Shown here: positions 43,841-45,839 of the stretch, one piece after another
Numbering within the stretch: the first letter of the stretch is position 1
Layout of the letters: each line of letters begins with the position of its first letter
Origin: Gillisia mitskevichiae
GTDB lineage: Bacteria; Bacteroidota; Bacteroidia; Flavobacteriales; Flavobacteriaceae
Direction of reading: 5' to 3'
Assembly: GCF_003634585.1 (NCBI RefSeq)
Contig: NZ_RBLG01000002.1
Span: 310,001-374,000, forward strand
Length of the DNA stretch: 64,000 nt
Program-made: the position numbers and the translations under genes
Notes under the pieces: model-generated
What the model was told of the DNA's origin: nothing
The model's database searches: none
Seen by the model: the letters and a program-made list of their open reading frames with translations, nothing else

Positions 43841-44320
43841 TTACAATTCTTTAAAAATAGAATGCATTAAACGTTTTTTATCGTTCATGCTTTCTTCTAG
43901 AGAAATCATAGTTTCAGTTCTATAAACTCCCTCAATATCATCTAATTGAAAAATTATATCCTTGGCATGTTGCGTATTCTTAGCACGGATTTTACAGAAA
44001 ACATTAAATTTCCCTGTAGTAACGTGAGCAACAGTTACAAATGGAATATCGTTAATACGTTCTAAAACAAATTTTGTTTGAGAAGTATTCTTCAAAAATA
44101 TACCAACGTAAGCTATAAAAGCATAACCTAATTTCTCGTAGTTAAGTGTTAGTGTAGAACCCAAAATTATTTGCGCTTCTTCCATCTTCTTAACACGCAC
44201 ATGAACGGTTCCTGCAGATATATTCAATTTTTTAGCAATATCAGTAAACGGAGTACGCGTATTCTCGATTAGCATATCCAGAATCTGATGGTCGGTTTCG
44301 TCTAATTTATATTTTGCCAT
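43841..44320 (-). CDS. Lrp/AsnC-family transcriptional regulator, 159 aa
   Basis: Feast/famine regulator: an N-terminal winged helix-turn-helix (about 8-60; FTDIAKKLNISAGTVHVRVKKM) and a C-terminal RAM/ASNC effector domain (65-150; IAYVGIFLKNTS, then VTVAHVTTGKFNVFCKI and ETMISLEES). Such proteins sense amino acids and form octamers. Target unknown; the neighbouring carboxypeptidase and its own regulator are not obviously linked. It has its own TAATTTTG -7 box (44354-44347) and terminator. Confidence 0.9.
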   Translation of the reverse strand: MAKYKLDETDHQILDMLIENTRTPFTDIAKKLNISAGTVHVRVKKMEEAQIILGSTLTLNYEKLGYAFIAYVGIFLKNTSQTKFVLERINDIPFVTVAHVTTGKFNVFCKIRAKNTQHAKDIIFQLDDIEGVYRTETMISLEESMNDKKRLMHSIFKEL

Positions 44321-44398: not shown

Positions 44399-45550
44399 CT
44401 AATTTATCATTAAAACTTCATCATTTAGAAGAATCTTATCAACTATAACGTTTTCGATGAGTGGTTTGTTGTCGGATAGACTAAGATTCTGAAAATTGCA
44501 TTGAATTTCCTTATGTGCAAAGAACGCCAATTCTGCAGAGATGTTTTCTACGATTGGTAAAAACTTAACCTCTTCCCTATTTAATATTTCTTTGTACTGA
44601 ATTGCTACATCTACGGTTTCACCCTCTATCACGGCGTTTCGCAATATGAGATCGTAAAATAGTTTCTCATTTTCAGGAATATTAAAATAGACAGAAGTAT
44701 TCATTTTCTTATAACACTGTGTAGCAATAGCGTTTAAGGCTGAAAAAAGCGCATAAAACACATATTCCCTGGTTTTCTCCCGATCATAATCCTCTTTAGA
44801 ATGACCTGCTTCAAACAAAATAGTTGGCACTCCCATACTTTGGAAAGCATCTCCCGTGCAATTAGCATTATAACCATCATCATATCTTCCAATTCTCTTA
44901 GGAATAAGCTTAGAAAGATCTTTATAAATAGCAGTTATAACTTTCATAGATTCTTCCCTTGAAGGCGTAAGAGACCTCTCATTGTCTTCTGATGGAGTTA
45001 AAAACGATAAAGTGGCTGGAGATTTTACATTTCCTGCACTAAATATAGTACGTTGATCATGAAGATTTAAGCAGAAATCTGGTTGAATATCATTAAACAT
45101 CTTTCTTAGAATTTTACTTTCTACTTGAGTTAGATTCTTTGCATCTCTGTTTAGATCGATCTCATTTGCATTTACACGTGTATAAGCTCTGGCTCCATCC
45201 GGATTTAACATCGGGATTATAAATAAGGTACAACTACTTAAAATGTCATTTACTACAGGATCATTAAACTGATCTTTAAAAACATTAAGTAAATCAAAAA
45301 CAGCTTTTGTAGTGGTAGATTCATTTCCGTGCATTTGAGACCACATAAGAATTTTCAACTTTCCAGAACCAAGTTTAATAGAATGGATTGGTTCCCCTAA
45401 TGTTGATTTCCCTAAAACTTCAAGTTCAAATTTAGAAGTCAAATTTCTTAAAGGTTCAGAAATATGTGTTGCATTTATATACCTACCAGAAAGAGTAGCT
45501 TCTTTAAAAGTGTGGTAATCTTTAATTATAGTTGAGAGTGTATTTATCAT
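44399..45550 (-). CDS. M14-family zinc carboxypeptidase, 383 aa
   Basis: Metallocarboxypeptidase domain (about 35-265) with zinc ligands His74 and Glu77 in MHGNEST, His164 in NLHDQRT, and the catalytic Glu247 in ILFEAGHS; LNRD (133-136) supplies substrate-binding residues. The last 110 residues form a separate C-terminal region. No signal peptide is visible, so it should act on peptides in the cytosol, unlike most exported M14 enzymes. It is divergent from the HTH regulator at 45831. Its -7 box TACTTTTG (45563-45556) lies in one operator-like dyad, just 5 nt before the ATG, so the transcript may be leaderless. Confidence 0.88.
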   Translation of the reverse strand: MINTLSTIIKDYHTFKEATLSGRYINATHISEPLRNLTSKFELEVLGKSTLGEPIHSIKLGSGKLKILMWSQMHGNESTTTKAVFDLLNVFKDQFNDPVVNDILSSCTLFIIPMLNPDGARAYTRVNANEIDLNRDAKNLTQVESKILRKMFNDIQPDFCLNLHDQRTIFSAGNVKSPATLSFLTPSEDNERSLTPSREESMKVITAIYKDLSKLIPKRIGRYDDGYNANCTGDAFQSMGVPTILFEAGHSKEDYDREKTREYVFYALFSALNAIATQCYKKMNTSVYFNIPENEKLFYDLILRNAVIEGETVDVAIQYKEILNREEVKFLPIVENISAELAFFAHKEIQCNFQNLSLSDNKPLIENVIVDKILLNDEVLMIN

Positions 45551-45625
45551 GTTTACAAAAGTAAATAATCATTAATTTACAATTGTAAACATCTAAATAC
45601 AGCATCATTGTTTACATTAGTAAAC
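45551..45625. promoter_or_regulatory. Three dyads at the M14 peptidase promoter
   Basis: Dyads of form TTTAC-N4-GTAAA are centred at 45558.5, 45582.5 and 45617.5 (24 and 35 bp apart). The third has perfect GTTTAC and GTAAAC arms (45610-45615, 45620-45625). The first overlaps the -7 box TACTTTTG and touches the start codon region. The second contains a possible -33 TTG. Confidence 0.75.
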
Positions 45626-45754
45626 AAGTCGCCAAAAACTTTTAAGTCGGGAAGTGGAAATATTCCATAAGGTTATAATAAATATCATAAATAACTATTT
45701 GTTAGTTGTTTATATCGTTTTAATTAAATAAAAGATTTAGTATTTAAAAGATTA

Positions 45755-45839
45755 ATTACAATTGTAACTTGTTATATTGAGGACATTACTTTACATTTGT
45801 AAACATATTAAAATCAAATTTTAATTTACAATGGTAAAC
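45755..45839. promoter_or_regulatory. Three dyads at the HTH-regulator promoter
   Basis: Further copies are centred at 45761.5, 45796.5 and 45831.5, exactly 35 bp apart. The middle dyad holds TACATTTG (45792-45799), a perfect -7 box, with TTG (45769-45771) 20 nt upstream beside the first dyad. The third spans the regulator's ATG at 45831. Confidence 0.75.

What the first reader, a model, noticed from the sequence alone, without database searches (positions are those of the whole stretch)
45551..45839. Six copies of a TTTAC-N4-GTAAA dyad flank a divergent peptidase/regulator pair
The 280-bp spacer between a cytosolic M14 carboxypeptidase and an HTH regulator holds six copies of the same dyad, three next to each gene, centred at 45558.5, 45582.5, 45617.5, 45761.5, 45796.5 and 45831.5. 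Three of the gaps are exactly 35 bp. The motif was not noticed elsewhere in the window. Such dense, phased sites suggest cooperative binding or looping by the adjacent HTH protein, so the two genes form a dedicated regulatory switch I have not seen described.
Basis: partly seen in the sequence, partly recalled or inferred. Interest (0 to 1): 0.72.

Follow-up and report, generated by a model that had tools for sequence, protein, structure and literature searches.

The report
Phased operator array for an autorepressor
Between two back-to-back genes of a flavobacterium lie six copies of one short DNA mirror motif that very probably bind the neighbouring regulator protein; related bacteria keep the motifs and tend to keep the distance between the two groups in steps of one DNA helix turn, which suggests the regulator folds this DNA into a small loop to silence both genes.

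Summary
In detail: five exact TTTAC-N4-GTAAA dyads plus one TTAC-N4-GTAA lie in or at the edge of the 280-bp spacer (0.11 exact matches expected per window).

The array recurs across Flavobacteriaceae and follows the XRE (HTH) gene, not the M14 peptidase or the Lrp/AsnC gene behind it. Of 204 genomes searched for paired dyads, 44 have a hit, 43 of them at this locus.

New points. (1) One dyad position per side holds the Bacteroidota -7 box TAnnTTTG pointing at its gene (28 of 28 and 35 of 35 in unselected genera), so binding should block both promoters. (2) One dyad spans the regulator's start codon, with near-fixed synonymous codons. (3) The distance between the groups changes mostly in steps of about 10.5 bp (141 genomes; 25 tree-independent pairs, p about 1e-4; control interval p 0.94).

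Best reading: a dedicated autorepressor of itself and a cytosolic M14 carboxypeptidase, probably through a helically phased loop. Signal and substrate are unknown. Four searches of an open-access library found no report of it.

The parts
44399..45550 (-). M14 zinc carboxypeptidase, 383 aa, no signal peptide seen by eye (no tool run), predicted active
   Evidence: Pfam PF00246 50.2 bits, cut-off 21.6; H74, E77, N134, R135, H164, E247 invariant in 29 aligned relatives; that these are the catalytic residues is recalled
45552..45565 (.). dyad 1 (TTTACAAAAGTAAA), next to M14; contains the M14 -7 box
45556..45563 (-). predicted M14 -7 box TACTTTTG (TAnnTTTG); predicted start at about 45551, i.e. almost leaderless
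   Evidence: sequence; in 35 of 35 unselected genera with a dyad 2 the position 24 bp from it has TAnnTTTG toward M14 (27 of the 35 positions still score as a dyad); box position -12 to -5 from PMC9723704, passages read
45576..45589 (.). dyad 2 (TTTACAATTGTAAA), 24 bp from dyad 1
45611..45624 (.). dyad 3 (TTTACATTAGTAAA), 35 bp from dyad 2
45755..45768 (.). dyad 4 (ATTACAATTGTAAC), seen in the window's genus and a few other genera
45769..45771 (+). possible -33 TTG of the HTH promoter, 20 nt before the -7 box
   Evidence: sequence; TTG at 19-21 nt in 9 of 28 unselected genera
45790..45803 (.). dyad 5 (TTTACATTTGTAAA), contains the HTH -7 box
45792..45799 (+). predicted HTH -7 box TACATTTG; predicted start at about 45804, leader about 27 nt
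   Evidence: 28 of 28 unselected genera that have this dyad show TAnnTTTG toward HTH, none reversed
45825..45838 (.). dyad 6 (TTTACAATGGTAAA), spans the HTH start codon
45831..46256 (+). XRE-type HTH regulator, 141 aa: N-terminal HTH, variable linker, conserved C-terminal motif IxRIVxFYxDGoFxxY
   Evidence: Pfam HTH_3 32.4 bits, cut-off 23; alignments
43841..44320 (-). Lrp/AsnC-type regulator downstream of M14, possibly in the same operon; rival binder, disfavoured

Best explanation
The HTH (XRE) protein is a dedicated local autorepressor. It binds dyads of consensus RTTTACAWWTGTAAAC. One dyad in each group overlaps the -7 promoter box of the gene on that side, so binding excludes RNA polymerase from both promoters; flanking dyads at 24 and 35 bp add cooperativity, and one over the start codon adds a further block. 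The two groups sit at a distance held in helical register, so the bound proteins most likely contact each other and close a DNA loop (or wrap) of about 20 turns that couples regulator and peptidase. Shown: the array, its conservation, its association with the HTH gene, the embedded -7 boxes, that paired dyads are found only at this locus in nearly all genomes with a hit, helical phasing. Inferred: binding, repression, looping. Unknown: the signal and the substrate of the peptidase.
For: Conservation: 160 near-exact sites in 46 genera against a mean of 5.2 in shuffles; adjacent spacings of 24 (26 times) and 34-36 (27 times). Dyads follow HTH: none within 400 bp upstream of M14 in 6 of 6 genomes (of the 99) with M14 but no HTH; none upstream of AsnC in 7 of 7 loci read where AsnC does not directly follow M14; kept where M14 is lost or moved. 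Exclusivity: paired exact dyads in 44 of 204 genomes, 43 at this locus; the control pattern hits 1 genome. Promoter overlap: 28 of 28 and 35 of 35, none reversed. In G048, which lacks HTH, the M14 gene has a TAnnTTTG box but no intact dyad. Start-codon dyad: Val2 is GTA in 61 of 65 (32% in the rest of these genes), Ile2 ATA in 62 of 65 (25%), Asn3 AAC in 132 of 137 (32%). Phasing: peaks near 190, 203, 213, 223.5, 234, 244 bp; 18 of 25 independent pairs within 2 bp of a multiple of 10.5 (42% expected), p about 1e-4; control interval M14 stop to AsnC start 9 of 29, p 0.94.
Against: No binding, expression or structural data; the structure tool never returned a model. In 45 unselected genera the -34 dyad was missing from its usual place in 17, the start-codon dyad in 7, and a dyad 2 in 10; some have a different layout. 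HTH relatives outside the order: of 8 loci from 7 genomes, 3 have no site upstream (one with the same SSISHILSGRN core) and 1 more only a weak distant one. G097 has HTH and M14 apart and no site upstream of HTH; G067 and G080 have only weak distant sites. The phase test uses tips picked in part because their distance differed from 213; the best period varies from 10.4 to 11.2 between samples and is 11.1 for the tree pairs. Helical phasing between promoters could have another cause than looping. The scoring matrix was trained on loci of the same family.
Confidence: 0.74

Rival explanations
1. The Lrp/AsnC protein encoded behind M14 is the binder; Lrp-type proteins bind phased arrays of dyads and wrap DNA (recalled).
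For: It directly follows M14 in most family loci read; the A/T-rich centre and multiple phased sites resemble Lrp arrays (recalled).
Against: No dyads upstream of AsnC in 7 of 7 loci where it does not directly follow M14, nor upstream of M14 in G048, which has AsnC and M14 but no HTH. Of the 6 genomes (of 99) with HTH and M14 but no AsnC relative at E 1e-30, 5 were read and 4 have dyads upstream of HTH. An Lrp regulator this conserved would be expected to have other arrays; in 43 of 44 genomes with paired dyads none lies elsewhere.
Confidence: 0.06
2. The HTH protein binds each group as an independent cooperative cluster and represses the two genes without looping; the helical phasing reflects something else, such as supercoiling coupling of two divergent promoters or partner proteins.
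For: Within each group the spacing alone (24, 35 bp) would allow local cooperativity; absolute phase over 20 turns cannot be fixed from sequence.
Against: Distance changes mostly by whole helical turns in independent lineages while the neighbouring M14-AsnC interval does not.
Confidence: 0.25
3. A regulator of another family encoded elsewhere, such as a BlaI/MecI/CopY-type repressor (operators with TACA-NN-TGTA, recalled), uses these sites.
For: Similar half-site, from memory.
Against: Sites follow the XRE gene through losses and rearrangements, and paired sites were found elsewhere in only 1 of 44 genomes. BlaI genes were not searched for.
Confidence: 0.03
4. The HTH protein activates rather than represses one or both genes.
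For: Dyad 4 and the M14-side dyads 2 and 3 lie upstream of the promoters.
Against: The promoter-linked dyads lie on the -7 box and one on the start codon, positions typical of repression.
Confidence: 0.1

Closest known systems
Phage lambda CI with its OR1-3 and OL1-3 operators (recalled)
   Same: HTH repressor controlling divergent promoters and its own gene; groups of three operators; cooperative binding and a loop between the two groups
   Different: Here both groups lie within 280 bp, the -7 boxes lie inside the operators, the partner gene is a peptidase, and the CI-repressor Pfam model scores below its cut-off; PHROGs transcriptional-repressor families do match the HTH domain (best phrog_2328, E 3.5e-11)
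Lrp/AsnC regulators with phased dyad arrays (recalled)
   Same: Several regularly spaced A/T-rich dyads, nucleoprotein wrapping
   Different: The binder here is inferred to be an XRE protein; arrays do not follow the AsnC gene
ImmR-ImmA and DdrO-IrrE, XRE repressor plus metallopeptidase pairs (recalled)
   Same: XRE regulator beside a metallopeptidase gene
   Different: The peptidase is M14, an exopeptidase family, not M78-type; the HTH and its array persist where M14 is lost, so the peptidase is not needed for the regulator
Divergons with double sites of GntR-family regulators and phased direct repeats of MocR regulators (PMC4494728, PMC5320631; passages read)
   Same: Comparative evidence for paired sites between divergent genes; repeats two or three helical turns apart
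   Different: Different protein family; no quantised distance between two groups in the passages read
MpaA murein tripeptide amidase and other bacterial M14 peptidases
   Same: M14 family, no signal peptide seen
   Different: MpaA model score 23 against cut-off 157; nearest solved structures only weakly similar, best E 1.5e-4

Membership tests
XRE / HTH_3 DNA-binding proteins | Pfam HTH_3 domain above gathering score | tested here: met
   32.4 bits against 23
XRE / HTH_3 DNA-binding proteins | binds an operator dyad near its own gene | not testable with these tools
   only the comparative association is shown
Phage CI repressor (PF07022) | score above gathering cut-off | tested here: not met
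   20.4 bits against 22
HigA antitoxin | TIGR02607 score above cut-off | tested here: not met
   21.6 bits against 47.7; a HigB toxin gene was not searched for, the divergent neighbour is M14
XRE plus M78-type peptidase pair (ImmR-ImmA, DdrO-IrrE) | partner is an M78-type endopeptidase | tested here: not met
   partner's only Pfam hit is Peptidase_M14
DNA-looping repressor | two operator groups whose distance is held in helical register | tested here: met
DNA-looping repressor | protein oligomer bridging two sites; half-turn insertions relieve repression | not testable with these tools
   needs bench work; no structure model was obtained
Lrp/AsnC-controlled array | sites accompany the lrp/asnC gene | tested here: not met
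   0 of 7 loci where AsnC does not directly follow M14 have sites within 400 bp upstream of AsnC
Peptidase M14 | Pfam score and zinc/catalytic residues | tested here: met
   50.2 bits against 21.6; residues invariant in 29 sequences, their role recalled
MpaA murein tripeptide amidase | NF007897 score above cut-off | tested here: not met
   23 against 157

The most novel reading that the evidence does not exclude
A family-wide, previously undescribed repression loop: an XRE protein whose only paired operators in the genome bracket itself and a cytosolic M14 peptidase, built as up to three plus three dyads, in which the sigma-factor -7 boxes of both promoters are themselves operators, the start codon lies in another operator, and evolution has changed the loop length mostly by whole helical turns.
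Probability: 0.55. Interest if true: 0.75.

Novelty: new variant of a known kind. Interest (0 to 1): 0.62.

Why it matters
Few transcription switches are worked out in Bacteroidota, whose promoters differ from the textbook ones (recalled). This locus gives a regulator, its operator code, both promoters and a testable loop in one 280-bp piece present across a large family. The stepwise distances are, as far as I know, an unusually clear evolutionary record of a helical-phase requirement, so looping can be predicted from genomes alone and then tested with simple insertions. It also gives a handle on an uncharacterised, widely conserved peptidase.

Tried and rejected
Chance: rejected. AsnC as binder: considered from its place behind M14 and rejected by gene-loss cases. 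Toxin-antitoxin and CI-repressor Pfam/NCBIfam models: below cut-off. PHROGs: the HTH domain matches six families, five of them transcription regulation; this fits any XRE repressor and was not taken as phage origin. Defence: no PADLOC hit for HTH or M14; AsnC has weak winged-helix matches to CARF/Csa3/CasR models, not followed. A wider regulon: 52 sites with up to one mismatch to TTTACANNTGTAAA in the genome, 26 in the control, 50 of the 52 listed; among those listed no second cluster was seen. Single-site targets are not excluded, and their contexts were not examined. Dyad 2 as a -33 element of the M14 promoter: would give a 16-nt gap, not taken further. A one-third-turn stagger of the sites: the window's centres give phases near 0, 0.29, 0.62, 0.33, 0.67, 0.00 of a 10.5-bp turn (arithmetic on the stated centres), but absolute phase over 20 turns depends on the pitch, so not claimed. 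Peptidase trimming the regulator's C-terminus: no evidence; the C-terminal motif is kept in G037 and G050, which lack M14 nearby, which fits oligomerisation better. Structure prediction of both proteins: never obtained. In one search the counts for promoter boxes include 80 loci fetched because a pattern required those boxes; the unbiased figures are those. On re-checking, the Val2 count was corrected from 64 to 65.

Full report
Observation. Shuffles give 0.11 exact matches per window. The whole genome has 18 exact sites, five of them here, against 17 for a control pattern; TTTACANNTGTAAA occurs exactly only here, twice. The last dyad overlaps the HTH start codon. The closest named relatives of the HTH protein are from Gillisia.

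Conservation. The HTH gene has one match in its own genome and is found in 81 of 99 genomes, own included, at E 1e-3; the M14 gene in 76 of 99. The order AsnC, M14, spacer, HTH is kept in most of the family loci read. In 46 genera the spacers hold 160 sites with at most one mismatch to TTACANNTGTAA against a mean of 5.2 and maximum of 10 in 50 shuffle rounds; 37 of 46 have at least three. A sample of named genomes found by protein, not by DNA pattern, gives at least one exact site in 77 of 77 loci and at least three near-exact sites in 69 of 77 (3 of the 80 loci were too short). Consensus from 207 sites: RTTTACAWWTGTAAAC.

Which protein. Natural losses separate the candidates (a site is a matrix score of 8 or more, for which column-permuted matrices give 51 hits in 625 kb against 372 observed; the matrix comes from loci of this family). 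M14 without HTH: 6 of 6 such genomes among the 99 (G048, G072, G083, G074, G085, G094) have no site within 400 bp upstream of M14. AsnC not directly behind M14: 7 loci read (G060, G061, G063, G067, G075, G076, G091), no site within 400 bp upstream of AsnC. HTH without M14 nearby: 8 of 12 such genomes were read; G037, G050, G066, G069, G079 and G090 have sites upstream of HTH, G067 and G080 only weak distant ones; in the later search G429 and G467 keep paired dyads beside HTH with no M14. HTH and M14 but no AsnC relative: 5 of 6 such genomes were read; G062, G065, G070 and G089 have sites upstream of HTH, G097 has none. In G040 another gene has come between HTH and M14 and the dyads stay on the HTH side. 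In G048 the M14 gene has a TAnnTTTG box about 23 bp upstream in a sequence resembling half a dyad, but no intact dyad; in so A/T-rich a stretch this may be chance. The sites therefore most likely belong to the HTH protein.

Exclusivity. Two exact TTACANNTGTAA sites with centres 20-50 bp apart occur in 44 of 204 genomes, the control pattern in one. In 43 of the 44 they lie at the HTH/M14 locus (40 seen in fetched DNA, of which G452 shows only the M14 side at a contig end; G427, G406 and G443 by overlap hits); the exception is G442. None of the 44 shows a second such place. Of 59 such pairs, 30 are 24 bp and 14 are 35 bp apart. This does not exclude single-site targets, nor arrays that are not exact.

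Promoters. The sigma-A -7 box of flavobacteria is TAnnTTTG at -12 to -5 (PMC9723704, passages read). In 45 genera not chosen by DNA pattern, the dyad near -34 of HTH is present in 28 and contains TAnnTTTG toward HTH in 28 of 28; a dyad 2 is present in 35, and the position 24 bp nearer M14 contains TAnnTTTG toward M14 in 35 of 35 (27 of these positions still score as dyads); none is reversed. Dyad 2 itself has the box toward M14 in 11 of 35. At the dyad 1 position the three outer bases of the half away from M14 are better kept (2.6 of 3, one of them being part of the box) than those next to M14 (1.8 of 3), which fits the box being the stronger constraint. A TTG 19-21 nt upstream of the HTH box is found in 9 of 28 unselected genera, and in 46 of 115 of a larger, partly selected set against 6% in shuffles. 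From the box position, transcription should start near 45551 for M14, one base before the ATG, so its mRNA would be almost leaderless, and near 45804 for HTH (inference). By the same rule 14 of 16 loci of the genus have a 1-nt leader, while other genera mostly have 13-15 nt.

Start-codon dyad. In 143 loci codon 2 is GTA in 61 of 65 valines and ATA in 62 of 65 isoleucines, and codon 3 is AAC in 132 of 137 asparagines, against 32%, 25% and 32% in the rest of these genes. The DNA, not only the protein, is under selection.

Helical phasing. A pattern with dyad 1, dyad 2 and the -34 dyad and a free gap was run over the same 397 family genomes in three gap windows (126, 15 and 4 genomes with a match). 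All 80 loci fetched from the hits hold the M14-HTH pair. The distance from dyad 2 to the -34 dyad in 141 genomes has peaks near 190, 203, 213, 223.5, 234 and 244 bp, with a few values between; the best period is 10.6 bp with Rayleigh R 0.80. Since 213 dominates, R alone is weak evidence: the 28 distinct values give R 0.54 at 10.5. On a tree of 123 loci from M14 plus HTH proteins, 25 independent pairs differ by 4 bp or more; 18 are within 2 bp of a multiple of 10.5, 42% being expected; p lies between 5e-5 and 3.5e-4 over thresholds 3, 4 and 6 and two nulls; the best period of the pairs is 11.1. The control interval from M14 stop to AsnC start gives 9 of 29 pairs and p 0.94; the start-to-start spacer gives 19 of 35 and p 0.015. 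One-per-genus unselected data give 28 distances with R 0.89; the named sample gives 74 distances, best period 11.2, R 0.78 at 10.5. Steps of one helical turn are the classical mark of a face-of-the-helix requirement, most simply a loop (established knowledge, inference here).

Reach. HTH relatives at E 1e-15 were found in 41 of 296 genomes of the phylum, 7 of them outside Flavobacteriales; 8 loci of those 7 were read: one has two dyads exactly 35 bp apart (L117), one has three (L119), one a single site (L118), one several weak ones (L120), one a single weak distant one (L123), and three none (L121, L122, L136). None has an M14 match within about 4 kb. The operator code is thus probably older than the pairing with M14 (inference).

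Proteins. The HTH protein has an XRE domain with a strongly conserved SSISHILSGRNKPS stretch, a linker of variable length and a C-terminal IxRIVxFYxDGoF motif. The C-terminal motif is kept in G037 and G050, which lack M14 nearby, which suggests oligomerisation rather than recognition by the peptidase (inference). M14 has residues expected to be catalytic, invariant in 29 sequences, and is not MpaA by score. No structure model could be obtained.

Mechanism and likelihood. HTH protein binds the dyads (0.9), represses both promoters by covering the -7 boxes (0.75), and closes a loop between the groups (0.6). What lifts repression is unknown; a product or substrate of the M14 enzyme would be the simplest guess.

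Literature. Searches for XRE with M14 and Flavobacteriaceae (one unrelated listing), metallocarboxypeptidase with Flavobacterium and divergent regulator (none), XRE with Flavobacterium and autoregulation (none) and the literal motif TTTACAAATGTAAA (none) found no report of this system; only an open-access library was searched. Broader searches on looping were seen as listings only, apart from passages of two papers.

Noticed in passing
L069 (G011:C1 end) and L011: G011 carries a second, broken copy of the AsnC-M14-HTH region (stops in M14, HTH cut short) near the contig end besides the intact one; the truncated HTH copy still has its dyads.
   Followed up: no
L070 (G014): In G014 M14, HTH and AsnC all look cut short or interrupted at the same locus, possibly sequencing error or decay.
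   Followed up: no
43841-44320: The Lrp/AsnC protein is extraordinarily conserved (96-99% in 14 of 15 genus relatives; the 15th, G014, is partial) while M14 beside it is only 53-78% identical within the genus.
   Followed up: partly
45550-45563: The predicted M14 transcript starts about one base before the ATG, a near-leaderless mRNA, in 14 of 16 loci of the genus; other genera mostly have a predicted leader of 13-15 nt.
   Followed up: partly
L034, L035, L038, L046, L086: A group of genera has a different layout: start-codon dyad kept, no -34 dyad, and a TACATTTG-containing dyad at about -167 to -179 instead.
   Followed up: no
G045:C45, G016:C12:815529, G011:C1:1651320 and others: Several genomes have a longer M14 paralogue (open frames of about 490-540 codons, 34-39% identity) elsewhere in the genome.
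   Followed up: no
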